Position numbers and translations under genes: made by a program
Shown here: positions 19,036 through 58,311 of the stretch, one piece after another
Layout of the letters: the number at the start of each line of letters is the position of its first letter
Numbering within the stretch: the stretch's first letter is position 1
Notes under the pieces: generated by a model
The model's database searches: none
What the model was told of the DNA's origin: nothing
Seen by the model: only the letters and a program-made list of their open reading frames with translations
IMG/VR virus record: IMGVR_UViG_3300022916_000006
Span: 1 to 64,000 of that record
Origin: a virus
Strand: one strand, 5' to 3'
Length of the DNA: 64,000 nucleotides

Positions 19036-21552
19036 ATGTATCAAAATATACACATTACAAGATTAAAAAACGCATATAAAGTTCATCTATGGGATGATGC
19101 TGATGGATATTCAGAATATATACACAAAACATATGCATACGTAAAAAATACTAAGGGTAAATATCTATCATTATATGGTGATAAAGTTAAAAAGGTTGAC
19201 CATTGGAGTAAAGAAGACTTACAAGCAGGTAAGATATTTGAAAGTGATATCCCACCAGAAACACGAGTCTTAATTGATAAATATGGTGAATCTGATGAAG
19301 TATCAATTAATCATAGAGAATTATATTTTGATATAGAAACTGAAGTAACACAAGGATTTCCTGATAAAAATAGAGTGGATAATAAAATAACATCAATAGC
19401 ATTATATGATAAATCAAAAGATGCATATTGTGTATTTATCACATCAGAAGATAATTTAAATTATATAGAAGATAATGTAACGGTGGAATCGTTTGATACT
19501 GAAGAATTAATGTTACATCGATTTTATGAAGAATATGTGACAATATCACCTACCATATTGAGTGGTTGGAATATTGATGGATTTGATGTTCCATATTTAT
19601 ATAATAGAACGAATAGATTGTTTGGTGAAGAATATGCAAATTCACTATCTCCCATCGGAATTGTTCAATATAATGAGTATAGTGATACATATAAAATTGC
19701 AGGAGTATCTTGTTTGGATTATTTAGCATTATATAAAAAGTTTGCAATTAAACAACAATCTTCATATCAATTGGGTGCCATTGGTCAACTTGAGGTTGAC
19801 ACAGGTAAGATTGAATATAGAGGATCATTGAATGATCTATATAAAAATGATATTAAAAAGTTTATTAAATATAACTTAAATGATGTTGTAATTATTAAAA
19901 AATTAGATGATAAATTAAAATATATTGAAATTGCTATGGGTATTGCTCACATTGGACATGTGCCATATGATACCATATATCATAGTAGTAGATATCTTGA
20001 TGGTGCAATTCTTACATATTTGAAGAAAAATAATATAATAGCACCGAATAGAAAACAAATAACAAAAGAAGCTAAAGATTCACATTTCAGTGGTGCATAT
20101 GTAAAAGAACCAATTCCTGGTAGATATGATTGGGTATATGATTTGGATTTGACATCAATGTATCCAAGCATAATTATGTCATTAAATATATCACCAGAAA
20201 CTAAAATAGGTAAATTTGAAAATTGGGATGATACATCTCTCATTGATGAAAATAAAGATGATCATATATTTATAAAAACCGATGGTACTAAATATGAATT
20301 GACACATAGTAAGATGAGGGAAATACTTGATAATAACGAGATGACCATTTCATCAAATGGAGTGATGTATGATAATGATCGAGTAGGAGTGATTCCTACA
20401 ATATTGAACACTTGGTTTGATCAACGAGTGCATTATAGAAAGTTAATGGCACAATATGATGAGTCTGGTGATATTAAACAGAGAGATTTTTATGATAAAC
20501 GTCAACATGTTCAAAAGATTATATTGAATAGTTTGTATGGTGTATTAGGATTATCAGTATTTAGATTTTATGATATTGATAATGCTGAGGCAACTACATT
20601 GACTGGTCAAGCTCTTATTAAATATACTCAAAAGATGGCTAATTATTATTATAATAATGAATTGAACGATGATAAGGATCATGTAATATATACAGATACT
20701 GATTCAATATATTGTTCTGCTGTACCAATAATAAAGAATAGATTTCCTAATATAGATGTGTCAGATGATAAAATTATGACAGAAAAAATATTGGATGTAA
20801 CATCAAATGTGCAAACATTTATTAATAAAAGTTATGATATGTTTGCTGATAAACTTTTAAACTGTAAATCGCATAAATTTAACATAAAGCAAGAAGTGAT
20901 TTCAAAATCAGCATTTTGGGTTACTAAAAAAAGATATGGTCAATGGATTATAAATGATGGTGGGACTCCATGTAATAAATTAGATGTTAAAGGACTTGAT
21001 ATTGTTAAAAGTAATTTCCCAGTATCATTCAGAGGTATTATGACTAAATTGTTAAATGGGATATTAAATCATGATCCTAAATCTCAGATAGATGATATGT
21101 TATCAAATTTTAAAATGAAAATGAAAACATTACCATTAAGTGATATTGCATCTCCAACTGGAGTAAATAATATGAAAAAATTTAAACATAAACCTAGGAC
21201 AATATATAATTCAAATATGATATTCACGAAGACTAAAAAAGGAGCACCAGCTCATGTCAAAGCTGCTATAGTTTATAATGATTTATTGGAATATTTTAAA
21301 CTTACGAATATAGTACCAATTACTAGTTCAGATAAGATAAGATGGGTATATTTAATAGAAAATCCTCTAAACATAGAACAGATTGCATTTAAGGGATATG
21401 ATGACCCTGAAGAAATCATGAGTTATATTAATATGTATGTTGATCGTAATAAAATATTTAACAAATTATTGCAGAAAAAGATAGACATGTTTTATGATAG
21501 CATGAGTTGGGTATTTGTTGATACTCAAAATACATTAGAACGTTTTTTTTAA
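19036..21552 (+). CDS. 43: Family-B DNA polymerase (T4 gp43-like)
   Basis: An 838-residue replicative polymerase with 3'-5' proofreading. Exonuclease motif I is YFDIETE (D99, E101), with NIDGFDVPYL as Exo II. Polymerase motif A is DLDLTSMYPS (369-378), motif B KIILNSLYG (494-502), and motif C YTDTDSIY (552-559). T4 gp43 is about 900 residues, so this is slightly shorter but complete. It has no intein. The cognate clamp and clamp-loader genes lie 5-9 kb downstream, with the base-modification cassette inserted between. Confidence 0.95.
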   Translation: MYQNIHITRLKNAYKVHLWDDADGYSEYIHKTYAYVKNTKGKYLSLYGDKVKKVDHWSKEDLQAGKIFESDIPPETRVLIDKYGESDEVSINHRELYFDIETEVTQGFPDKNRVDNKITSIALYDKSKDAYCVFITSEDNLNYIEDNVTVESFDTEELMLHRFYEEYVTISPTILSGWNIDGFDVPYLYNRTNRLFGEEYANSLSPIGIVQYNEYSDTYKIAGVSCLDYLALYKKFAIKQQSSYQLGAIGQLEVDTGKIEYRGSLNDLYKNDIKKFIKYNLNDVVIIKKLDDKLKYIEIAMGIAHIGHVPYDTIYHSSRYLDGAILTYLKKNNIIAPNRKQITKEAKDSHFSGAYVKEPIPGRYDWVYDLDLTSMYPSIIMSLNISPETKIGKFENWDDTSLIDENKDDHIFIKTDGTKYELTHSKMREILDNNEMTISSNGVMYDNDRVGVIPTILNTWFDQRVHYRKLMAQYDESGDIKQRDFYDKRQHVQKIILNSLYGVLGLSVFRFYDIDNAEATTLTGQALIKYTQKMANYYYNNELNDDKDHVIYTDTDSIYCSAVPIIKNRFPNIDVSDDKIMTEKILDVTSNVQTFINKSYDMFADKLLNCKSHKFNIKQEVISKSAFWVTKKRYGQWIINDGGTPCNKLDVKGLDIVKSNFPVSFRGIMTKLLNGILNHDPKSQIDDMLSNFKMKMKTLPLSDIASPTGVNNMKKFKHKPRTIYNSNMIFTKTKKGAPAHVKAAIVYNDLLEYFKLTNIVPITSSDKIRWVYLIENPLNIEQIAFKGYDDPEEIMSYINMYVDRNKIFNKLLQKKIDMFYDSMSWVFVDTQNTLERFF

Positions 21553-21565
21553 AAAAGGAGTTAAC

Positions 21566-22093
21566 ATGATAAAATATAACATAGCAAAAGAATTTAACTT
21601 TGATTATGGGCATAGGGTATGGCCTCAAAAACTAAATTCTGAATTTAGCTTAGATTGTGAATTGGCGTGTAGACATTTACATGGACATAGAGGTACTGTA
21701 ATTGTTCACTTAGAATCAGAGGAGTTGGATAACCAAGGAATGGTGACTGATTTTCATCATTTAAATTGGTTTAAGAAGTTCCTAGATGATGCAATTGATC
21801 ATAAATTTATATTGGATAGAAATGATCCGTTGTTACTTGATTTATTTCCACTATTGGTATTGGAGGAAATGAAAGAATATGCAGTAGCTAACTTAAATGA
21901 TGTACCAGTATTATTGTGGGAAATATATGAAGGATTAGTTATAGTTGATTTTATACCAACTTCAGAAAATATGGCAAAGTGGTTATTAGATATTGTTAGC
22001 CATAAAATGAAACCATTATCTGTATTGGTATCTCATATAGAATTTTTTGAAACACCAAAATCACAAAGTGTATGTTATCAAGGAACTATGTAA
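21566..22093 (+). CDS. queD: 6-carboxy-tetrahydropterin synthase (QueD)
   Basis: A 175-residue enzyme for the second step of 7-deazaguanine synthesis, converting dihydroneopterin triphosphate to 6-carboxy-tetrahydropterin. The ACRHLHGHRG segment gives the catalytic Cys and two zinc His ligands, with the earlier His in FDYGHRV; TDFHHL, DHKFIL and PTSEN complete the family pattern, and VSHIEFFETP is the C-terminal Glu. AAGGAG lies before the ATG. It starts a run of preQ0 genes (queD-queE-nuclease-folE-queC) with almost no spacing. Confidence 0.93.
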   Translation: MIKYNIAKEFNFDYGHRVWPQKLNSEFSLDCELACRHLHGHRGTVIVHLESEELDNQGMVTDFHHLNWFKKFLDDAIDHKFILDRNDPLLLDLFPLLVLEEMKEYAVANLNDVPVLLWEIYEGLVIVDFIPTSENMAKWLLDIVSHKMKPLSVLVSHIEFFETPKSQSVCYQGTM

Positions 22094-22840
22094 ATGAATT
22101 ATAATGATATTATTCCCGTAAATGAAGTGTATCCATGTATACAAGGTGAGGGTAGATTAATTGGTGTTCCTCATCTTTTAATCAGAACTACTGGATGTAG
22201 ATTGAAATGTCAATTCTCTGGAGGATCATTTTGTGATACACCATATAGTAGTTGGAATCCTGAAAAGGGTAAATTCTCATTAAATAATATAGTTGATATA
22301 TATAAGGAATTTCCTAATATACGTCATACTATGATAACTGGTGGAGCTCCAACTTTACATTCAAAGTTATTACAAGAATTATGTACAATTGGAAAAGAAT
22401 TTGGGCACTATATTACAATTGAAACAGAGGGTAGTGAATATGTATATACTAAAGCTGATTTGATATCATTATCACCAAAACTATCAAATTCAATTCCAAT
22501 ACCTGGATCAAAAATGGGACAACAAACTGTGACAGATAATGATAGACGGCAACACGTTAAATGGTATAGAAATATAGAAGCTATGAAGGATTTAATAAAA
22601 CACCATCATGATTATCAAATTAAACCAGTAATTTCACAACAATCAGATTTGAATGAGGTTGAAGAATTATTGAAAGAATTAGATGTAGCAAAATGTAAAG
22701 TATATCTAATGCCAGAAGGATTGACTAAAGATCAATTGGAGAGTAGAAGAAAGTGGTTAATACAATTGTGTATTGATCGTGGTTATAATTTCACTGATAG
22801 GCTACATATAATAGCTTATGGTGATAAACGAGGAGTTTAA
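22094..22840 (+). CDS. queE: 7-carboxy-7-deazaguanine synthase (QueE), radical SAM
   Basis: A 248-residue radical-SAM enzyme contracting 6-carboxy-tetrahydropterin to 7-carboxy-7-deazaguanine. VYPCIQGEGRLIG at the N-terminus and CDTPYSSW after the cluster are typical of QueE. The iron-sulfur cysteines are C35, C39 and C47, so the usual C-x3-C-x2-C is stretched to C-x3-C-x7-C by a FSGGSF insert. The GGEP motif is GGAP (83-86). The gene starts right after queD. Identification is firm from context and flanking motifs; the cluster-site variation is noted separately. Confidence 0.9.
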   Translation: MNYNDIIPVNEVYPCIQGEGRLIGVPHLLIRTTGCRLKCQFSGGSFCDTPYSSWNPEKGKFSLNNIVDIYKEFPNIRHTMITGGAPTLHSKLLQELCTIGKEFGHYITIETEGSEYVYTKADLISLSPKLSNSIPIPGSKMGQQTVTDNDRRQHVKWYRNIEAMKDLIKHHHDYQIKPVISQQSDLNEVEELLKELDVAKCKVYLMPEGLTKDQLESRRKWLIQLCIDRGYNFTDRLHIIAYGDKRGV

Positions 22841-22841
22841 T

Positions 22842-23456
22842 ATGGGAACAAAGAAACCATCAAGTAATAAATTATTTAATAAACAATTTTCAAAGGGTAA
22901 AGTAGGTGAAGAATATTTTGAACATGTAATAGCTAAAGATTATTTTGATGAATTATACATGTATAATGATTTTAATAATCCTGTTGACAGGCGATATCAG
23001 ATTGATGGCATAGATGGGTATATAAAGGATAATAAGTGGGATAACAAATATTTTATAGAGATTAAAAGTAATTTGACATATAATCCAATACTTAAAGATT
23101 TTTCAGCTTGTTTAGAATTTAATAAGTGGGATATAAGTGAACAACAACATCATGGAAATGATGAGGAAGAGGGATATATTCAGGATTCAAAGGCACATCG
23201 AATTTATCATCTGGAAGTGATAAATACGAAAAATACAAAATCAGGATTTGTGGGCACTGGAAATTGGGTATATTATGATTTACCAACGATGAGAAATTTT
23301 ATACACCGTGAATGGAATAAACCAAAGGCAACAAATTGGATACGTGCCCTATCGTTTGTTGGAGGATATAATTCTAATTATGCAAGATTAATTTCAATGT
23401 CAGTAAAGGATTCTAGGTTCCCACTTCACAATAAGCGGTCTATAACATACAGATGA
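22842..23456 (+). CDS. PD-(D/E)XK nuclease-like protein in the deazaguanine operon
   Basis: A 204-residue protein. The ATG at 22842 is chosen because it follows GAGGAG (22829-22835 region) and the queE stop. [17 protein letters not shown] at the N-terminus, [12 protein letters not shown], and YFIEIKSN give the order Glu ... Asp ... Glu-x-Lys expected of a PD-(D/E)XK nuclease core. Long His/Glu-rich and aromatic stretches follow. It may cut DNA lacking the modification or process ends, but the position is the only clue. It overlaps folE by four bases, so it is part of the same operon. Confidence 0.6.
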
Positions 23457-24079
23457 TAAAAAAAATAAAAAGTAATGAAAATATAATTAGATCAACATCA
23501 GATCGAGATGAGATGTTGTTGGATGCTACTAAATATTATGGTAAGTTTCTTGATAGTTTGGGATTCGATTGGAAACATGACCCTAATATGATGGATACTC
23601 CAAATCGTGTAGCTAAAATGTTCATTGATGAATTGTATGCTGGAAGTTTTAATGCACCACCAAATATAACAGCATTTGATAATGTAGATGGATATGATGG
23701 TATGGTGTTTCAAGGAAATATTAAGATGCAATCTACTTGTAGTCATCATGCAGTTCCGTTTGTTGGAGTTGCCCATATAGCATATATCCCATCAGCTGAT
23801 GGTAAAATAATAGGTTTGAGTAAATTAAATAGGATTGTTGAATATTATGCAAGAAGACCACAAGTTCAAGAAAACTTAACTATGCAAATACATTCACATG
23901 TTGATCAAATGTGTGAGGGAAATATAGGAGTAGCTGTTATGATAGAAGCAAATCATATGTGTGTGCAAGTGCGTGGGGTGGAACATGATTCTATAATGAA
24001 GACTACTAAATTATCAAAAAGATTCTTAACAGAAGATAAAGTATTAAATGAACTTTATCAATTTATAAATGGACAATAA
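23453..24079 (+). CDS. folE: GTP cyclohydrolase I (FolE)
   Basis: A 208-residue enzyme that opens GTP to dihydroneopterin triphosphate, the first step toward both folate and 7-deazaguanine. [20 protein letters not shown] gives the zinc Cys (C96) and His ligands, [20 protein letters not shown] is the family core, and HMCVQVRG holds the second zinc Cys (C170). DTPNRVAKM is also characteristic. It lies between the nuclease-like gene and queC and so most likely feeds preQ0 synthesis. It overlaps the upstream gene by ATGA. Confidence 0.94.
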
Positions 24080-24082
24080 TAA

Positions 24083-24745
24083 ATGAGTAAAATTAAGAAA
24101 GTAATTATATATTCTGGTGGATTAGATTCATATACGATGTTGATGGATTTATTGTATAAAAACAAATCTATATCAGCCATATCATTTGATTATGGACAGC
24201 GACATGATAAAGAACTTGAGTTTGCTAAACGAGTGTGTAGTAAACATGATATTGAGCATATAGTTGTTGACATAAATTCAATAAATAAACTAATGCAAGG
24301 ATCATCATTAACATCTGATATTGATATACCAGAAGGACATTATGAAGATGAAAACATGAAATCGACAGTTGTACCAAATAGAAACATGATCTTCATATCG
24401 CTTGCAACAGCCTATGCTGTGTCAATAGGGGCGAATGAAGTGTGGACTGGTGTACATGCTGGAGATCATGCGATATACCCTGATTGTCGGGGTGAATTTA
24501 TTGATAAAATAAATGAAGTTACTAAAATTTCAAATTATGAATCTGTTGAAGTAAAAGCTCCATTTATTGAAATGTCTAAAATAGGTATAGTAGATATTGG
24601 TAAACGATTGGGAATTGATTATTCTGATGCATGGACCTGTTATAAGGGTAATGAATTTGCATGTGGAAAGTGTGGATCATGTCAGGAAAGACTTGAAGCA
24701 TTTGATCAAAATGACATTAAGGATCCGATGAGATATGAAACATAA
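24083..24745 (+). CDS. queC: 7-cyano-7-deazaguanine synthase (QueC)
   Basis: A 220-residue ATP-dependent enzyme converting 7-carboxy-7-deazaguanine to preQ0. The P-loop is SGGLDS (11-16) of the PP-loop superfamily; [15 protein letters not shown] and [14 protein letters not shown] are QueC signatures. The C-terminal zinc site is [12 protein letters not shown] with an earlier Cys in WTCYKG. Domain length is normal, and there is no fused glutamine amidotransferase. The product, preQ0, is the usual substrate of DpdA, encoded two genes later. Confidence 0.94.
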
Positions 24746-25421
24746 TTCTGGTGATGAAAAGTTAATACCAATGTTAGAATGGGGAGTACCAGCTGATATT
24801 CAAGGAAGTGATGAAATTGTTTTAAATTCACCAATAATGATCAAGGCACAAGAAAAGATTATTGAATTATTTAAACCAAAAAGTAATACTGCATTTGTTT
24901 CATTATGTACTTCAACTAGACCATATTCATCAGGAAGAAAATGGAACAAATTCATAAAAGAATTTAATGATGTTGATTTTATAATATCATCAAATGGTGG
25001 TGTAATTCCCATTGAATATGAAAATTCATATCCATATTTGACTTATGATGCACATGGTACGATAGAATATGATGAGGTATATAAATTATATACGACAAGA
25101 AATTTAATAAGATTTTTTATACTTAAAAAATATGAGAATATAGTATTTAATTTCAGACCTAATTTAAGAAATAGTAAATCTGCAAAAATTGCTGGGGATT
25201 ATCTTTTTGAAAAAGGACATATAAAAAGTTATTGCATTATACCAAATATTGATTTGTATAATGAGGCACAGAATGATGGATTTACAAAACTTGGATTGTC
25301 AATGTATCCAGATTTACATCCAATAATATTGACAAAATTAAAAGAATCAGTGATTAAATATACAAAAAATACAACGATAAAAAAAGAAAAGGATGAAAAT
25401 GATATTAATTTATTTTGGTGA
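24735..25421 (+). CDS. ArcS/DUF5591-like protein of 7-deazaguanine modification
   Basis: A 228-residue protein overlapping queC by 11 bases. Residues about 54-110 read [14 protein letters not shown] ... [20 protein letters not shown] followed by DAHG. This matches the pattern of the archaeosine-synthase core (DUF5591), which has a Cys, a PYS motif and a (V/I)P-E-(L/Y)E...YP...YD segment. ArcS converts preQ0 in archaeal tRNA to archaeosine or its precursor. Here the domain stands alone without a transglycosylase part and could act on preQ0 already in DNA. The assignment rests on pattern recognition; the reaction in phage is inferred. Confidence 0.6.
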
Positions 25422-25456
25422 ACTATCAATCAAAACTCACACTGGAGGAAGATATA

Positions 25457-26647
25457 ATGAGTAACTTTATTTATATACCATCATTCTTTTCTGGTGAATA
25501 TGGTGGGACTATGAAAAAGAATTTTAGATTTTCTAAATCTAATATGACATGTAGATATTATGCTGATGATTTTCCAGAAAAATATCAACATAAATATGCT
25601 TTGATTAGTGCAGGTGCAAATTCATCAAAAACATATAGACACGACTTGGGATTAGACAATTCATTTGTGTTGGGTGATTCTGGTGGTTATCAAATAGCGT
25701 CTGGTGCAATGAAGTGGGATATTAAACATAGAGATAGAATTTTTAACTGGTTAGAAACTAACTCAGATGTTGCTATTAATTTGGACATTCCACCACGAAT
25801 GAAATATGCTGGTAAATTTAATGAATGTTTGGATATTAGTAAAGATAATTTTAAATATTTTTATGAAAATCAAACTGGAAATACTAAATTTTTAAATGTA
25901 TTGCAAGGTGAAAATGAACTATCTTATTTAAATTGGTATAATGGTGTGAAAGATTTCCAGTTTAATGGATGGAGTATTGGAGGAGTTCGGGGTAATTTAT
26001 ATAGAATGTTATCAGGCATATATACTTTAATTAACAATAAAGAACATTTGAATCTTAATAATGATTATTTTCATATATTGGGGGCATCTAGGGTTAGAGA
26101 CTTTTTAATGTTAATTCAATTGCAAAAATCACTTGAGGATATTGGATCAAATATAACGGTTACTACAGATAGTTCAACACCAGATAGGCACGTAGTGTAT
26201 GGATTATATTTCATTAATTATAGCATTAAGCATGAAAATTTAGATGCTATTACGTTTCCAAATGGAAGCAATAATCCAGATATTATTGATTGGTTTAAGA
26301 CAACGAATCAAACTATACCCAAATTTACAGAATTTGATAATATAATAGGGGAAGAATTTTCATGGAAAGATGTTGCTGATTGGAATTTAGATTGTAAGAT
26401 TGGTATGAGATTGCATAATTTTTATTTATTAAAAGATGCAATTCAAGCAATTACTTGGTTAGTGTATGGGCATGATTACATATTGAAACAAAGTATAAAT
26501 TCTAATACATATAAAATTTTACAGTCAATTGATGAGATGGTGAAATCAAGTAATCCAACAAAGATATTTGAAAAATATAAACCATTATATATGAAATTAA
26601 GTAATATGTCAATTAAAACTGATGTTAAAAATCACGATTTTTTTTAA
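25457..26647 (+). CDS. dpdA: DNA guanine transglycosylase (DpdA), TGT-fold
   Basis: A 396-residue protein predicted to exchange guanine in DNA for preQ0 or a derivative. The ATG at 25457 follows GGAGGAA (25444-25450); an in-frame ATG at 25415 lacks a ribosome-binding site. TGT landmarks are DSGGYQ (74-79), VLQGE, GGVRGN, FHILGASRVRD and TDSSTPDR, whose Asp matches the TGT nucleophile. The Cys-rich zinc site of tRNA TGT is absent, as in DpdA proteins. Its place at the end of the preQ0 genes strongly supports a DNA rather than tRNA target. Confidence 0.85.
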   Translation: MSNFIYIPSFFSGEYGGTMKKNFRFSKSNMTCRYYADDFPEKYQHKYALISAGANSSKTYRHDLGLDNSFVLGDSGGYQIASGAMKWDIKHRDRIFNWLETNSDVAINLDIPPRMKYAGKFNECLDISKDNFKYFYENQTGNTKFLNVLQGENELSYLNWYNGVKDFQFNGWSIGGVRGNLYRMLSGIYTLINNKEHLNLNNDYFHILGASRVRDFLMLIQLQKSLEDIGSNITVTTDSSTPDRHVVYGLYFINYSIKHENLDAITFPNGSNNPDIIDWFKTTNQTIPKFTEFDNIIGEEFSWKDVADWNLDCKIGMRLHNFYLLKDAIQAITWLVYGHDYILKQSINSNTYKILQSIDEMVKSSNPTKIFEKYKPLYMKLSNMSIKTDVKNHDFF

Positions 26648-27394: not shown

Positions 27395-28750
27395 ATGAAT
27401 AATGATGATAAACAATCATTTATTATCCACAATGGTAATTGTTTGGATGTTATGAAAACTATGGAGGATAATTCAGTGGATTCCATTGTAACTGATCCAC
27501 CATATGGATTGGTTGGAGTTTCACGAAATGGTAGTAGCCAACCTGGAGATTTAGAAACTCCATATGGTAGAAGTGGGCCAAGCAAGAAACGAGGATTTAT
27601 GGGGTTTGAATGGGATGGACAAATACCTTCAGTTGAAATATGGAAAGAATGTTTGAGAGTGTTAAAACCTGGAGGTCATTTATTATCATTCGCTGGAACT
27701 AGAACACAACATAGAATGGCAGTAAATATTGAAGATGCTGGATTTGAAATTAGAGATATGATTTCATGGGTGTATGGTAGTGGATTTCCTAAGAGTCATA
27801 ATATAAGTAAAGCAATTGATAAAATGGCTGGAGTAAAAAGAGAAGTTATTGGTCAAAATCAAGTTATTTTAAATAAACAAAAGAAAGAGTTTGAGTGTGG
27901 TATTCGTAATGTGAAATCTGTCATGAATAAAGGAGCACCAGAAAGGAATAATGGATTTGTAACATTATCTGCTGATATTACTAAACCAGCTACTCCAAAC
28001 GCAATCCAATGGGAAGGTTGGGGTACTGCATTAAAACCAGCATTTGAACCAATTACAGTAGCAAGAAAACCAGTATCAGAAAAGACTATTGCAAAGAATG
28101 TATTAAAACATGGTACAGGTGGGATTAATATTGATGGGTGTAGGATTGAATTAAATGGTGATTATAAATGTAAAGCTAACGGGAGACCGTCACAAACTGG
28201 GTTATCTGATAATTATAATTCAGAACAAGCAAATCAACAAGATACAAAAGGTAGATTTCCAGCTAATTTTATTCATGATGGTAGTGATGAAGTTGAAGAA
28301 TTGTTCCCTAATACGAAAAGTGGTGCGATAAAAAAAGGAACGTTAGCTGGCACAAATAATAATTTATATGGTGCTTATAAAGGATATAAAAGTGAAGAAT
28401 TTAAAAAGAGTGAAGGTTCAGCATCAAGATTTTTCTATTGTGCAAAAACTAGTAAAACAGATAGAAATGAAGGATTGGATGATCAATTAAATAATCATCC
28501 TACGGTTAAACCAACTAAACTTATGCAATATCTTGTAAGATTAGTAACTCAGCCAAATGGTATTGTATTGGACCCATTTATGGGAAGTGGATCAACTGGT
28601 AAGGCATGTAAATTGGAAGGATTCAACTTCATTGGTATTGATTTAGATGAAAATTATTGTGAAATTGCTGAAGCTAGAATAAAATTAGCAGAAATATCAT
28701 ATAAAAATGAAGAAATAAAAAAACAAAATACATTAGAAAGGTTTATGTAA
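27395..28750 (+). CDS. DNA methyltransferase, N6-adenine/N4-cytosine type
   Basis: A 451-residue beta-class DNA methyltransferase. The catalytic motif DPPY (34-37) comes first and the SAM-binding motif DPFMGSGSTG (about 393) last, followed by FIGIDLDENYCEIAEARI, the order that defines the beta class. The variable centre (about 130-380), probably for target recognition, is long. The recognition site cannot be read. It lies between the clamp and clamp-loader genes. It may give a second layer of protection against restriction beside the deazaguanine cassette. Confidence 0.9.
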   Translation: MNNDDKQSFIIHNGNCLDVMKTMEDNSVDSIVTDPPYGLVGVSRNGSSQPGDLETPYGRSGPSKKRGFMGFEWDGQIPSVEIWKECLRVLKPGGHLLSFAGTRTQHRMAVNIEDAGFEIRDMISWVYGSGFPKSHNISKAIDKMAGVKREVIGQNQVILNKQKKEFECGIRNVKSVMNKGAPERNNGFVTLSADITKPATPNAIQWEGWGTALKPAFEPITVARKPVSEKTIAKNVLKHGTGGINIDGCRIELNGDYKCKANGRPSQTGLSDNYNSEQANQQDTKGRFPANFIHDGSDEVEELFPNTKSGAIKKGTLAGTNNNLYGAYKGYKSEEFKKSEGSASRFFYCAKTSKTDRNEGLDDQLNNHPTVKPTKLMQYLVRLVTQPNGIVLDPFMGSGSTGKACKLEGFNFIGIDLDENYCEIAEARIKLAEISYKNEEIKKQNTLERFM

Positions 28751-54364: not shown

Positions 54365-56115
54365 AAATAACAACAGTGAATACATTAGACTTTGATTTAT
54401 TAGAAATCATAAAGGATAAATCAAATAGAGTAATTGATGGAGTGAATCATGGTAGAATTACTTACTATGATCGTATAAGGGATCGATATATAAAGATATT
54501 TGATGAGGACTACTGTAGACTATCATATTTTAAGAACGCTATTAAATGTGGATATTATGATACATTAGCTCCAGCACTATCATCGGTCATATTTGATAAT
54601 GGCAATATAATTGGTTATATAACGAATGCTGGTAAAGTGTTAAATGATTTAAATCTATTAAAAGAATATGAAAATAAAATAATTGATGTATGTGATGCAA
54701 GTGGATTATTTTATTATGATTTAGTTCCAGAAAATGTAATACAATTACCAAATGGTGAGTTAAGCTTAATTGATTTGGATGGTGTATATGATATTTCAGA
54801 TTACAGTTTGATGAATTCACATAATGCAGAAATCAAACCAAATACATTAAAAAAATATATACAACAAAAATGGAGTGATAAATATATGAAGCCAATTAGT
54901 TTTATAATACCAAGCAGAACAAATCTAAAATATTTAAAACAAGCATATAATTCAATAAGACAAAATCTACATCCAATGCATGAAATTTGTATTGCCGATG
55001 ATGCTTCAACAGATGATACTTGGAAGTGGTTGACTGAAAAAGTCAAAACAGATGTTAATTTAAAATTATATAAAAATGAAGGTCCAGATAGATTAGGTCA
55101 CACAATATTATATGATACATTGGTGAATGAAATATCAACAAAGGATATTATCTGTATATTTCATGCTGATATGTATGCATGTAAAGGATTAGATGATGAG
55201 TTTATTAAATATCTAAAGCCAAGTGTAGTTGTGTCAGGTACTCGAATTGAACCACCATTACATCCAGACGGTCCTGAAAAGATAATAAAAGATTTTGGAA
55301 TAGAACCAGAAGAATTTAAAGAAAGTGAATTAAACGATTTTGTTGAAAATTTAAAAAATCAACATAGAACCAAATTAACAAATGGTATATTTGCACCCTG
55401 GGCTATGTATAAAGATGACTTTCAATCAATTCATGGACACGATCCATTATATGCCCCACAATCAAAAGAAGATTCGGACATCTTTAATAAGATGCATCTT
55501 GCTGGATATGATTTTATTCAGACTTGGAATGGTTTTGTATATCATATGACATGTCGTGGAAGTAGATTTGCTGATGGTGCAAAGAGAAATCCAAATGGTG
55601 AAGTATTTATGAAAAATCGTGAGACTGATGAATGGTTGACTCAGAATAAAAAATCACATAGAAACTTCATTCGTAAATGGAGCTCAACGGTATTACATGA
55701 TGCATATTTGAAACCAATAGTAAAGAATAAATATAATATTGGATTAGTAATATCAAATGCTAACTATGAATTAATTGAAATACTTGAACCATTCTTTGCA
55801 ACATTATATGTAGATTGTGATTTTAAAATATATGTTGACAATGAACAACCAAACACATTATATTCAATGATGGATAGAGTACAGAATATTGATGTTACAC
55901 CACATAATGATATTGTTGTAGAATTCGATGCATCAAAATTAACAAATGAATTGCTCAATGAATTCTTGATAAAATTATCAGATGTGATTGCAGATTCTGG
56001 TGAAATTGGTGAGTTCGAATATGAGATATTTAAAATAAAAATAAAAAGTGTTTCATCATATCAAAAAGATTTATTATATTATGATAACAATATAATCAAT
56101 AAAAGAGCGTTTTAA
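54361..56115 (+). CDS. Kinase-like domain fused to GT2 glycosyltransferase
   Basis: A 584-residue protein. Residues 1-150 look like a small protein- or sugar-kinase fold: Lys45 in RYIKIFD, YYDLVPENVIQLPNG (D120...N125, the catalytic loop) and LIDLDGVYDI (D138/D140, metal loop). From about residue 172 a GT2 domain begins (PISFIIPSRTNLKYLKQAYN, CIADDASTDDTWKWL, CIFHADMYACKGLD with the DxD-like HADM). The last ~120 residues are a separate strand-rich domain. A kinase-glycosyltransferase fusion would phosphorylate and glycosylate the same sugar. This is inference. Confidence 0.75.
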   Translation: MKITTVNTLDFDLLEIIKDKSNRVIDGVNHGRITYYDRIRDRYIKIFDEDYCRLSYFKNAIKCGYYDTLAPALSSVIFDNGNIIGYITNAGKVLNDLNLLKEYENKIIDVCDASGLFYYDLVPENVIQLPNGELSLIDLDGVYDISDYSLMNSHNAEIKPNTLKKYIQQKWSDKYMKPISFIIPSRTNLKYLKQAYNSIRQNLHPMHEICIADDASTDDTWKWLTEKVKTDVNLKLYKNEGPDRLGHTILYDTLVNEISTKDIICIFHADMYACKGLDDEFIKYLKPSVVVSGTRIEPPLHPDGPEKIIKDFGIEPEEFKESELNDFVENLKNQHRTKLTNGIFAPWAMYKDDFQSIHGHDPLYAPQSKEDSDIFNKMHLAGYDFIQTWNGFVYHMTCRGSRFADGAKRNPNGEVFMKNRETDEWLTQNKKSHRNFIRKWSSTVLHDAYLKPIVKNKYNIGLVISNANYELIEILEPFFATLYVDCDFKIYVDNEQPNTLYSMMDRVQNIDVTPHNDIVVEFDASKLTNELLNEFLIKLSDVIADSGEIGEFEYEIFKIKIKSVSSYQKDLLYYDNNIINKRAF

Positions 56116-56390
56116 TGAAATATCCATGTTATATAGTCAAGATGAAGTCAACCAACAATATGGCGTTTAGTTGTAGTCCAGCATATTTAACCAAAGCATC
56201 AACAGGTGTTGTGACTGGTAAAATATGGATAGATTCTAATATTAATGATGCTATTAGATTTGAAAGAAACGTAGATATAAAAAACTTACATAAACATGAA
56301 ATTCCAATTAATTTATCAATATTAGTGGCTAAATATGGCGAACCAATGAAAATAAATTCAGAAGCTGAATGGGTAGCAATGATGTTATGA
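56115..56390 (+). CDS. Small array protein, first in the run
   Basis: A 91-residue protein beginning at the last base of the preceding stop. It begins MKYPCYIVKMK and ends SEAEWVAMML, a variant of the YYII ... ENELVAHLL plan of the following genes. Its middle (DAIRFERNVDIKNLHKHEIP) is longer than in the later members. It overlaps the next gene by four bases (ATGA). Confidence 0.65.
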   Translation: MKYPCYIVKMKSTNNMAFSCSPAYLTKASTGVVTGKIWIDSNINDAIRFERNVDIKNLHKHEIPINLSILVAKYGEPMKINSEAEWVAMML

Positions 56391-56605
56391 AATATTATAT
56401 GATATATGATCCAGGTATGAGTGCCACCGAATTAAAATTTGTTTTTTATAATAGAGCATTGACTGTTTATAAATATACAACTGACTTTAGCAATAGTGAT
56501 ATTGTAGTATCAGATTCTAGAGATAAATTAAATAGTAATAGTGGTAAACGTTGGGGAAATGTTAAAGTATTTTCTGAAAATGAAATTATACCATATATAT
56601 TGTAA
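56387..56605 (+). CDS. Small array protein (MKYYMIY ... ENEIIPYIL)
   Basis: A 72-residue protein starting at the ATGA overlap; an upstream in-frame ATG at 56369 is less likely because all siblings start at the overlap with a KYY(I/M)I opening. It has an Asn/Ser/Asp-rich middle and the family ending SENEIIPYIL. Unlike most siblings it is followed by a five-base gap. Confidence 0.7.
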   Translation: MKYYMIYDPGMSATELKFVFYNRALTVYKYTTDFSNSDIVVSDSRDKLNSNSGKRWGNVKVFSENEIIPYIL

Positions 56606-56610
56606 AACAT

Positions 56611-56835
56611 ATGAAATATTATATTATAAGACCCAAGACAGATATAAAAAATCCATATATTGCCCAAATGTCTAAGAATGATTATTATGCTACCCGTAAT
56701 GTTGAAGACATTGTATCATTTAAAACCAAGTCTGAAGCTCAAAGAGTGATAGCACATGAAAGTATGAGGTATCCTGAGTTCTGGTGTGATGCTTATGTGA
56801 TAGATGAAAATGAACTGATACCCCATCTGTTATGA
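56611..56835 (+). CDS. Small array protein (MKYYIIR ... ENELIPHLL)
   Basis: A 74-residue protein: opening strand MKYYIIRPK, middle VEDIVSFKTKSEAQRVIAHE (a strand then helix with conserved F-x-(S/T)-K), end DENELIPHLL. The middle closely matches the next gene (RITAFKSKTQAQNIITAG). It overlaps the next gene by ATGA. Function unknown. Confidence 0.75.
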   Translation: MKYYIIRPKTDIKNPYIAQMSKNDYYATRNVEDIVSFKTKSEAQRVIAHESMRYPEFWCDAYVIDENELIPHLL

Positions 56836-57062
56836 AATATTATATTATACGAATAAGTGATAATGAAAACCATTACAAATATGTTATGACAAGTGGATCA
56901 GGGTTACATTATGGGGCATCACCAGACTATACAAGGATAACAGCATTCAAGTCCAAAACACAAGCACAAAACATAATAACTGCAGGCTGTAAACGTGATA
57001 TGAATTTTTGGCATGATATGGTGGTAGTAAATGAGAATGAATTGGTTGCACATATTTTATGA
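56832..57062 (+). CDS. Small array protein (MKYYIIR ... ENELVAHIL)
   Basis: A 76-residue protein, the clearest sibling of the preceding one: MKYYIIRIS at the start, FKSKTQAQNIITAGCKRDMN with FWHDMVVV in the middle (compare FWCDAYVI in its neighbour), and NENELVAHIL at the end. The pair looks like a recent duplication by sequence pattern. It overlaps the next gene by four bases. Confidence 0.75.
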   Translation: MKYYIIRISDNENHYKYVMTSGSGLHYGASPDYTRITAFKSKTQAQNIITAGCKRDMNFWHDMVVVNENELVAHIL

Positions 57063-57313
57063 AACGTTATTATATTGTATGGAAATATGTTGATATTGAT
57101 AAGAGTTCAGTTGGAAATTGGCTCTGGCATTATGCTTACATGCGTAAGTATGTAATTGATGATGAACATGATGTTTTTTATTGGACATTTAATATAAATG
57201 AAGCACGGGTTTTTAATTATAAACTTTATGCTAAATGGTACATGTGGAGTCGAAAACGAACAGCTCATATGTGTATATTATCAGAACAAGAATTAGTATT
57301 GAAATTATTATGA
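57059..57313 (+). CDS. Small array protein (MKRYYIV ... EQELVLKLL)
   Basis: An 84-residue protein rich in Trp and Tyr: MKRYYIVWKYVD at the start, WTFNINEARVFNYKLYAKWY in the middle and SEQELVLKLL at the end. It keeps the family start and end but the middle is diverged. It overlaps the next gene by four bases. Confidence 0.7.
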   Translation: MKRYYIVWKYVDIDKSSVGNWLWHYAYMRKYVIDDEHDVFYWTFNINEARVFNYKLYAKWYMWSRKRTAHMCILSEQELVLKLL

Positions 57314-57522
57314 ACAAATATTATATTGTATATCGTGTTAGTAGCTCAAATGAGTACGTATATAGAGGATCGAATGGGTGGTTGAGTACAACAAATGATA
57401 GAAAAATTATACCATATGAATCATATGAACATGCTATGGTGGATTATGTTGGGTTGCATTGGGATATAGCGGATAACACATCAATAATGGATGAAATTGA
57501 ATTGCTTGCTAAATTATTATGA
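57310..57522 (+). CDS. Small array protein (MNKYYIV ... EIELLAKLL)
   Basis: A 70-residue protein starting at the ATGA overlap (57310); an in-frame ATG at 57235 would lie inside the preceding gene. It opens MNKYYIVYRVSS, has YESYEHAMVDYVGLHWD in the middle and ends MDEIELLAKLL. It overlaps the next gene by ATGA. Confidence 0.7.
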   Translation: MNKYYIVYRVSSSNEYVYRGSNGWLSTTNDRKIIPYESYEHAMVDYVGLHWDIADNTSIMDEIELLAKLL

Positions 57523-57833
57523 ACAAAACGCTCAAACCAAGAATATATCCATATTATGTATTAAGATTAAAAGATGGTAAAAAAGGATATGCATCTCAAG
57601 TACATCATCGTAAAACATCTCACATATTTAGACGACAATTTGGATCATTTAAACAAACAGTCAAGCGACCTAAGATAATACATTCAGTGGATATGTTGGA
57701 AGCTCATAAATTTAAAACCTTTATTGAAGCATATGCTATGTGCAATATTAGTGTGAAATGGACCAATGAAGATAGTTTATATGATATAATTAAAATATCA
57801 GATGAAGCATGTGAAATGGTATATTTATTATGA
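57519..57833 (+). CDS. Small array protein, longer and divergent
   Basis: A 104-residue protein, longest of the array. It has a very basic N-terminal extension (MNKTLKPRIYPYYVLRLKDG) and a KKGYASQVHHRKTSH segment before the family-like middle (AHKFKTFIEAYAMCN) and an ending DEACEMVYLL in place of ENELVAYLL. It is still recognisably of the same plan and keeps both ATGA overlaps. Confidence 0.65.
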   Translation: MNKTLKPRIYPYYVLRLKDGKKGYASQVHHRKTSHIFRRQFGSFKQTVKRPKIIHSVDMLEAHKFKTFIEAYAMCNISVKWTNEDSLYDIIKISDEACEMVYLL

Positions 57834-58072
57834 AACATTATATAATATATAAAGATGAAAGAGATAGTGGATATGTTCAATATGATATTACGGCAAATTC
57901 TTATGAATTAACTAAAAATATTAATAATATTATTGGATTTGATTCCAAAAGAAAAGCACAATTTATGATTACAGAGAGAATTAATTATTGTATTAAGCGT
58001 GGGTATAATTATCACTTCTGGAGTTATGTAACAATAGTGACAGAAAGTGAATTGGTTGCATATTTATTATGA
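57830..58072 (+). CDS. Small array protein (MKHYIIY ... ESELVAYLL)
   Basis: An 80-residue protein: MKHYIIYKDE start, NNIIGFDSKRKAQFMITERI middle with the F-x-S-K-x2-A pattern, HFWSYVTIVTESELVAYLL end. FW before the last strand is shared with the siblings at 56611 and 56832. It overlaps the next gene by four bases. Confidence 0.75.
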   Translation: MKHYIIYKDERDSGYVQYDITANSYELTKNINNIIGFDSKRKAQFMITERINYCIKRGYNYHFWSYVTIVTESELVAYLL

Positions 58073-58311
58073 AATATTATATTATAGCAATAAAGGGTGA
58101 TACAACATATTACAGATCATATTTCTTAAGGAGACATGAAGATATATATTCATACTGGTCAATAAAATTTAAAAAAGCAATAGAATTTATATCTAGGGAT
58201 GAAGCAACTAAGTTTACAAAAACTCATAGCTATAAATATACAGTTGGTGTACCATCTATGAGTGATCTTAAAATTGTATCAGAAACTGAATTAGTTGCAT
58301 ATTTATTATAG
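58069..58311 (+). CDS. Small array protein, last in the run (MKYYIIA ... ETELVAYLL)
   Basis: An 80-residue protein: MKYYIIAIKGD start, KAIEFISRDEATKFTKTHSY middle, SETELVAYLL end, identical over its last six residues to the preceding gene. It ends with TAG and is followed by a 35-base gap, so it closes the array. Confidence 0.75.
   Translation: MKYYIIAIKGDTTYYRSYFLRRHEDIYSYWSIKFKKAIEFISRDEATKFTKTHSYKYTVGVPSMSDLKIVSETELVAYLL

What the first reader, a model, noticed from the sequence alone, without database searches (positions are those of the whole stretch)
21566..26647. Complete phage cassette for 7-deazaguanine DNA with an ArcS-like protein
queD, queE, folE and queC supply preQ0, and a TGT-fold DpdA lacking the zinc site would insert it into DNA. 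Between queC and dpdA lies a stand-alone ArcS/DUF5591-like protein, which in archaea converts preQ0 in tRNA to archaeosine or its precursor. An archaeosine-type or other modified preQ0 base in phage DNA is therefore plausible. I recall that related phage DNA modification is known, but whether this arrangement is described is unclear to me.
Basis: partly seen in the sequence, partly recalled or inferred. Interest (0 to 1): 0.85.

Follow-up and report, generated by a model that had tools for sequence, protein, structure and literature searches.

The report
Phage guanine-modifying cassette with ArcS-like enzyme
An uncultured phage carries a gene set that makes the guanine analogue preQ0, swaps it into its own DNA, and probably decorates it further with a small archaeal-like enzyme (ArcS core); one cultured phage (Vibrio nt-1) is known to carry the same kind of set, but the final DNA base is still unknown and is probably not simple archaeosine.

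Summary
21566-26647 is a tight, co-directional operon, queD-queE-orphan-folE-queC-arcS-dpdA, between a T4-like DNA polymerase and a clamp-like gene. The 228-residue protein matches DUF5591 (Pfam 8e-11, above cut-off). Its predicted fold finds AF0587 (a DUF5591 protein) as the only significant PDB match, and phage nt-1's DUF5591 protein in the viral library. The next gene folds like the solved DNA preQ0 insertase DpdA (7ui4, top hit).

It is not a new kind of system. Vibrio phage nt-1 has the same gene set with a stand-alone ArcS, 40% identical, described in 2019. I found about 20 further viral contigs with stand-alone ArcS, nearly all in preQ0 cassettes, with three different DpdA lineages.

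What differs here: the DpdA is a divergent DpdA2 relative without a PHROG, and no Gat, QueF or RaSEA (archaeosine radical-SAM partner) was found on the 118.7-kb contig. RaSEA is also absent from nt-1's complete genome and 18 other ArcS-bearing viral records.

Thermococcus ArcS is a lysine transferase that needs RaSEA to reach archaeosine. The phage enzyme therefore most likely makes an N-substituted amidine of dPreQ0 (lysine or another amine) rather than dG+. That last step is inference.

The parts
21566..22093 (+). queD: 6-carboxytetrahydropterin synthase
   Evidence: Pfam PTPS 5.4e-28, PHROG 2389 8.5e-35; CxxxHGH motif present
22094..22840 (+). queE: 7-carboxy-7-deazaguanine synthase (radical SAM), with a CX3CX7C cluster motif
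   Evidence: PHROG 2076 1.4e-45, Pfam Radical_SAM 5e-8; T4-like relatives show a similar widened spacing
22818..23456 (+). orphan 212-aa protein inside the operon; D...ExK motif resembling PD-(D/E)XK nucleases (reading by eye only)
   Evidence: no Pfam, PHROG or NCBIfam hit; only identical copies found in related loci
23453..24079 (+). folE: GTP cyclohydrolase I
   Evidence: Pfam 1.5e-48, PHROG 2197 9e-57
24083..24745 (+). queC: 7-cyano-7-deazaguanine (preQ0) synthase
   Evidence: Pfam QueC 3e-67; NCBIfam TIGR00364 216 bits, above cut-off 150; Cys4 zinc motif visible
24735..25421 (+). arcS core (DUF5591) stand-alone protein; candidate preQ0 nitrile-modifying enzyme; motif C58-T-S-T-R-P-Y-x4-K-W
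   Evidence: DUF5591 8e-11; 39.6% identical to nt-1 ArcS, E 8e-40; fold match to AF0587 5.8e-6 and nt-1 DUF5591 1.5e-21
25457..26647 (+). dpdA: TGT-fold DNA transglycosylase, DpdA2-like, zinc cysteines lost; DSGG and DSS acid motifs kept
   Evidence: top PDB fold match 7ui4 DpdA 9e-9; profile match to DpdA2 group 97% probability, E 3e-11; Shine-Dalgarno GGAGGA before the ATG at 25457

Best explanation
This is a phage DNA hypermodification operon. FolE, QueD, QueE and QueC make preQ0 from GTP, and DpdA exchanges guanine for preQ0 in phage DNA. The stand-alone ArcS core then attacks the nitrile of preQ0, probably through the invariant Cys58, and adds an amine to form an amidine. Because no RaSEA, Gat or QueF was found, the end product is more likely an N-substituted amidine (a lysyl or other amino adduct of 7-deazaguanine) than archaeosine. 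The modification would protect the DNA from host restriction. Shown here: gene identities, operon structure, folds, conserved motif, association of ArcS with DpdA, absence of RaSEA, Gat and QueF matches on the contig. Inferred: base insertion in DNA, order of the steps, the amine used, the protective role.
For: Complete preQ0 gene set. DpdA fold match to the DNA preQ0 insertase 7ui4 ahead of all tRNA TGTs. ArcS core identified by sequence and by fold. Of about 20 distinct viral contigs with stand-alone ArcS, nearly all have preQ0 genes, and most have a DpdA of one of three lineages beside them. C58, P63, Y64, G89, P92, P100 and Y104 are invariant in the phage set and in archaeal ArcS (C, P63, Y64 and the GG are forced by the search patterns, the rest are not). 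Archaeal full-length ArcS is TGT + DUF5591 + C2 + PUA, so the phage pair DpdA + ArcS mirrors a fusion. Some archaea fuse RaSEA to DUF5591, but RaSEA is absent from 20 of 20 ArcS-bearing viral records, including the complete nt-1 genome. Thermococcus ArcS transfers lysine to preQ0 nucleosides as small as a nucleotide (PMC11298593). In nt-1 the known bases add up to under 0.2% of G, whereas a related Vibrio phage with QueF has 15% dPreQ1 (PMC12028318), which leaves room for an unassayed base in nt-1.
Against: No chemistry was measured. The contig is probably partial for a T4-like phage, so a RaSEA or Gat gene could lie on the missing part. Phage ArcS differs from archaeal ArcS at three motif positions (K to R, S to K, H to W), so lysine may not be the substrate, or the enzyme may do something else. 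From memory, an early study reported archaeosine formation by an archaeal ArcS alone with simple nitrogen donors. Low known-base content in nt-1 could simply mean low activity; the 0.2% and 15% figures come from different studies.
Confidence: 0.5

Rival explanations
1. The cassette makes 2'-deoxyarchaeosine (dG+): ArcS adds ammonia (from glutamine, free ammonium or a glutaminase elsewhere) to preQ0 without a RaSEA partner.
For: Hutinet 2019 predicted dG+ for ArcS phages and found a trace (0.02% of G) in nt-1. Seven ArcS cassettes and nt-1 have a separate class II glutamine-amidotransferase-like gene after queC.
Against: No such glutaminase gene on this contig and none detected in the DpdA1-type ArcS cassettes. 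In nt-1 the Gat next to queC could itself account for the trace dG+. Thermococcus ArcS makes preQ0-Lys and needs RaSEA; no RaSEA found.
Confidence: 0.2
2. The ArcS core acts as a nitrile hydratase or amidohydrolase and yields dADG, like bacterial DpdC.
For: Hutinet 2019 proposed this possibility; nt-1 has 0.035% dADG.
Against: The same paper says the small amount of dADG may come from natural oxidation of dPreQ0; the fold relates to ArcS/AF0587.
Confidence: 0.1
3. The cassette yields plain dPreQ0 and the ArcS core is degenerate or has a binding or regulatory role.
For: dPreQ0 is the most abundant of the assayed bases in nt-1. The archaeal K, S and H of the motif are replaced in phages.
Against: The protein is maintained in about 20 contigs with 24 invariant positions including the Cys, and occurs with three DpdA lineages, which argues for a kept catalytic role.
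Confidence: 0.12
4. The genes serve tRNA queuosine or archaeosine modification (host takeover), not DNA.
For: The pathway to preQ0 is shared with tRNA modification; other phage proteins of this type are annotated queuine tRNA-ribosyltransferase.
Against: The fold search ranks DNA-acting DpdA first. No QueF match. The phage ArcS has no PUA or C2 tRNA-binding domain that archaeal ArcS has. Precedent phages carry the bases in DNA.
Confidence: 0.05

Closest known systems
Vibrio phage nt-1 7-deazaguanine cassette (DpdA2 + ArcS; Hutinet et al. 2019, PMC6884629)
   Same: queD, folE, queC, stand-alone DUF5591 ArcS (39.6% identical over 90%) and a DpdA clustered; T4-like phage
   Different: nt-1 has a class II glutamine amidotransferase-like gene after queC and queE elsewhere; its DpdA2 (phrog_10773) is only remotely similar to this DpdA, which has no PHROG; gene order differs
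Archaeal ArcS (archaeosine synthase alpha, lysine transferase)
   Same: DUF5591 core with CX3[K/R]PY motif, G89, P92, P100, Y104
   Different: archaeal enzyme carries TGT-like, C2 and PUA domains in one chain and works with RaSEA; phage protein is the core alone with K to R, S to K, H to W in the motif; phage sequences form one separate clade (100/99 support, long branch)
Phage 9g cassette (Gat-QueC + DpdA, dG+)
   Same: preQ0 synthesis genes plus a DNA transglycosylase
   Different: 9g uses a Gat-QueC fusion and a DpdA1-type enzyme; no ArcS (from the paper)
KVP40-type Vibrio phages (DpdA2 + QueF, dPreQ1)
   Same: preQ0 cassette and DpdA2-like enzyme in T4-like phages
   Different: QueF instead of ArcS as the tailoring enzyme
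DpdA of PA5oct-type Pseudomonas phages and uncultured T4-like contigs
   Same: homologous transglycosylase (about 30% for PA5oct, up to 51% for uncultured contigs), next to clamp and polymerase genes
   Different: those mostly have a glycosyltransferase-like gene in the slot before or after dpdA; this window has arcS

Membership tests
DUF5591 / ArcS core | Pfam PF17884 match above curated cut-off | tested here: met
   42.4 bits against 26
DUF5591 / ArcS core | fold of a solved DUF5591 protein | tested here: met
   2q07 AF0587 is the only PDB match with E below 0.001 (5.8e-6)
DUF5591 / ArcS core | motif C-X3-K-P-Y-X2-S-X2-H of archaeal ArcS | tested here: inconclusive
   C, P and Y kept; K is R in all phages, S mostly kept (G in the window), H is W
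Archaeosine synthase (full ArcS) | equivalog model cut-off and TGT + C2 + PUA domains | tested here: not met
   32.9 bits against 440 and no further domains; archaeal control L212 meets it
Archaeosine synthase (full ArcS) | RaSEA partner encoded | tested here: not met
   no TIGR01210 match on the 118.7-kb contig, which is probably partial, nor in 19 other ArcS-bearing viral records
Archaeosine synthase (full ArcS) | transfers lysine (or ammonia) to preQ0 | not testable with these tools
   needs biochemistry
DpdA / TGT superfamily | TGT fold, best match to a DNA preQ0 insertase | tested here: met
   7ui4 first, then only TGTs down to 1e-5
DpdA / TGT superfamily | two catalytic-type aspartates (DSGG and a second Asp) | tested here: met
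   D74-S-G-G and D238-S-S invariant in 20 homologues
DpdA2 (nt-1 type) | sequence or profile similarity to nt-1 DpdA2 | tested here: met
   hhalign 97% probability, E 2.9e-11 against the nt-1 group, weak against DpdA1; no hit to phrog_10773 itself, so a divergent branch
[quoted passage not shown]
Phage 7-deazaguanine DNA modification system | 7-deazaguanine base present in virion DNA | not testable with these tools
   needs LC-MS; the phage is uncultured

The most novel reading that the evidence does not exclude
Phage stand-alone ArcS cores are amino-acid (lysine or other amine) transferases that leave an N-substituted amidine on 7-deazaguanine in DNA as the final product. This would be a DNA hypermodification not reported in any paper I read, and it would explain the low yield of known bases in phage nt-1.
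Probability: 0.35. Interest if true: 0.85.

Novelty: new variant of a known kind. Interest (0 to 1): 0.55.

Why it matters
The 2019 work left the function of phage ArcS open and treated ArcS as an archaeosine-forming amidotransferase. Since then Thermococcus ArcS has been shown to attach lysine and to depend on RaSEA. About 20 viral contigs keep the ArcS core while none of the 20 records searched encodes RaSEA. This suggests a different end product and gives a direct test: look for the mass of a dPreQ0-amine adduct in nt-1 DNA. If found, it would add a class of amine- or amino-acid-decorated guanine analogues in DNA and a possible way to evade restriction systems. The wider survey also suggests that the gene next to dpdA is a variable tailoring slot (ArcS, QueF, glycosyltransferase-like, aminotransferase-like).

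Tried and rejected
A first family search with the ArcS protein alone, and with a two-sequence alignment, found only copies of the same virus; motif patterns worked. A genome-collection search for phage-type ArcS found no relative, so no prophage or host link. Searching for a RaSEA partner: a second radical-SAM gene lies at contig 101229-102107, but it does not match the RaSEA model and looks like a generic radical-SAM protein; rejected as partner. QueF matches in related loci were weak and, where I compared coordinates, fell on FolE, its paralogue. Direct sequence search of DpdA against PDB gave nothing significant; the fold comparison settled it. The glutamine-amidotransferase-like profile had no PDB sequence match; its class rests on visible motifs and an InterPro note in one record. 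Weak fold matches of ArcS to SMUG1, macro domains, YaaA and DUF6884 proteins were not pursued. Phillips 2010 and the 2024 review were not readable here.
Full report
Observation. The window is part of a 118,745-base IMG/VR virus contig, GC 30%, with a T4-like family B polymerase at 19036-21552. The closest cultured polymerase is that of Microcystis phage Mel-JY01 at 44%. Directly after the polymerase lie seven co-directional genes with overlaps or gaps of at most 35 bases: queD, queE, an orphan, folE, queC, the DUF5591 gene and dpdA, followed by a clamp-like gene, a DNA methylase and a 309-aa gene that reads like a clamp-loader small subunit. Family scans confirm the four preQ0 enzymes well beyond chance. 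Fourteen kilobases around the cassette are identical in two other IMG/VR contigs, and a third carries an identical 5.7-kb fragment.

The 228-residue protein. It matches DUF5591 above the curated cut-off and parts of the archaeal ArcS models. tblastn against 50,697 phage records finds only Vibrio phages nt-1 (two records) and CZ01, at 39-40% identity over 90%. Motif scans of viral contigs gave about 20 further distinct contigs. In 18 aligned sequences 24 positions never vary, including C58, R62, P63, Y64, K69, G88, G89, P92, P100 and Y104. Some of these were part of the search pattern, but nt-1, found independently, shares them. The model (pLDDT 88.8) has one significant PDB match, AF0587, itself a DUF5591 protein, and in the viral library nt-1's DUF5591 protein at 1.5e-21. 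Archaeal sequences fetched by motif show the architecture TGT + DUF5591 + C2 + PUA; three archaeal proteins group with a short chain whose N-terminal half, in the two scanned, matches RaSEA, that is, RaSEA fused to DUF5591. Compared with archaea, the phage proteins replace K by R, S by K and H by W in the motif and form one clade (100/99), although on a long branch.

The transglycosylase. No library model matches 25457-26647, but over 570 viral stretches encode relatives. The model of the window protein (pLDDT 89.7) matches 7ui4, the DNA preQ0 insertase DpdA, first, then bacterial, archaeal and eukaryotic TGTs. The two acid motifs DSGG and DSS are invariant among 20 homologues; the zinc cysteines seen in some relatives are lost here. 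By profile it is closest to nt-1's DpdA2 (97%, E 3e-11) and far from the DpdA1 group. It is therefore a divergent DpdA2-like branch.

Context of ArcS. Stand-alone ArcS occurs in three cassette types: with DpdA2 plus a separate class II glutamine-amidotransferase-like gene (nt-1 and seven contigs); with a DpdA1-type protein (phrog_887) and no such gene (several contigs); and with this window's DpdA, again without it. The window's ArcS is sister to one from a DpdA1 cassette, which suggests that arcS has moved between cassettes. Two contigs (L044/L045) carry arcS without preQ0 genes in the stretch held.

Mechanism. [quoted passage not shown] DpdA exchanges guanine in DNA for preQ0. Hutinet 2019 showed the products in several phages, and for nt-1 found dPreQ0 0.11%, dADG 0.035% and dG+ 0.02% of G, and called the ArcS function unclear. 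Thermococcus ArcS was later shown to transfer lysine to preQ0 nucleosides, even to a mononucleotide, with RaSEA completing archaeosine (PMC11298593). No RaSEA model match exists in this contig, nt-1 or 18 other ArcS-bearing viral records. The control search crossed the family cut-off in only 3 of 14 well-known genomes; the listing does not say which three, but the three that also carry DUF5591 (Methanocaldococcus, Haloferax, Methanosarcina) are among its hits. Bacterial hosts are therefore not expected to supply RaSEA. A related Vibrio phage with QueF instead of ArcS has 15% dPreQ1 (PMC12028318). I infer that the phage ArcS core, via thioimide formation at Cys58, adds an amine to the nitrile of preQ0 and that the adduct is the end product. 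The amine may be lysine; the uniform phage-specific substitutions leave its identity open.

Novelty. The kind of system is known from nt-1, so this is not categorically new. New here are the ArcS combination with a third DpdA branch, the lack of RaSEA, Gat and QueF, the breadth of the stand-alone ArcS family, and the resulting prediction of a different base. Papers searched show no study of the ArcS product in phages; most subscription papers were not searchable.

Limits. The contig is probably partial, the host unknown, and no base was measured. The role of Cys58, the order of insertion and tailoring, and protection from restriction are inference from relatives.

Noticed in passing
L063-L142 (80 viral loci with DpdA relatives): In 53 of 80 loci a glycosyltransferase-like gene (GT-B type, weak Pfam Glycos_transf_1 match for the one tested) lies within 500 bp upstream of dpdA, usually overlapping its start; Pseudomonas phage vB_Pa-PAC2 (PA5oct type) also has a family 4 glycosyltransferase after dpdA. 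A sugar on 7-deazaguanine in DNA is a possible reading.
   Followed up: partly
L002:13651-14259 (nt-1) and L026, L036, L047, L050, L052, L053, L060, L005: Class II glutamine-amidotransferase-like protein (MCxxF start, HNGII, DTE motifs) right after queC; in nt-1 it could explain the trace of dG+ that was linked to ArcS.
   Followed up: partly
L156:1202-2503, L216:3073-4380: Archaeal proteins that fuse RaSEA (TIGR01210) to a DUF5591 domain, supporting their joint function.
   Followed up: partly
L027 (306-kb contig): Two arcS genes and two dpdA genes close together near one end of the contig.
   Followed up: no
window 56115-58311 and contig 64105-89000, 94585-95400, 113550-114518: Dozens of tandem small ORFs of about 60-100 aa, most starting MKYYI or similar: a large family of apparently paralogous small proteins of unknown function.
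   Followed up: no
window 22818-23456: Orphan gene inside the operon with a PD-(D/E)XK-like motif by eye; no family match.
   Followed up: partly
window 27395-28750: N6/N4 DNA methylase gene between the clamp-like gene and a clamp-loader-like gene.
   Followed up: no
contig 101229-102107 (L011:17229-18107): Second radical-SAM gene, not RaSEA; function unknown.
   Followed up: partly
window 32852-54108: Long run of genes that read like glycosyltransferases, sugar epimerases and aminotransferases (seen by eye only).
   Followed up: no
L078:6369-7376, L080, L123:2020-3105: Aminotransferase-like gene near dpdA in three loci, another candidate tailoring enzyme.
   Followed up: no
window 22094-22840: QueE with widened spacing of the cluster cysteines (CX3CX7C); relatives in T4-like contigs show a similar wide spacing.
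   Followed up: partly
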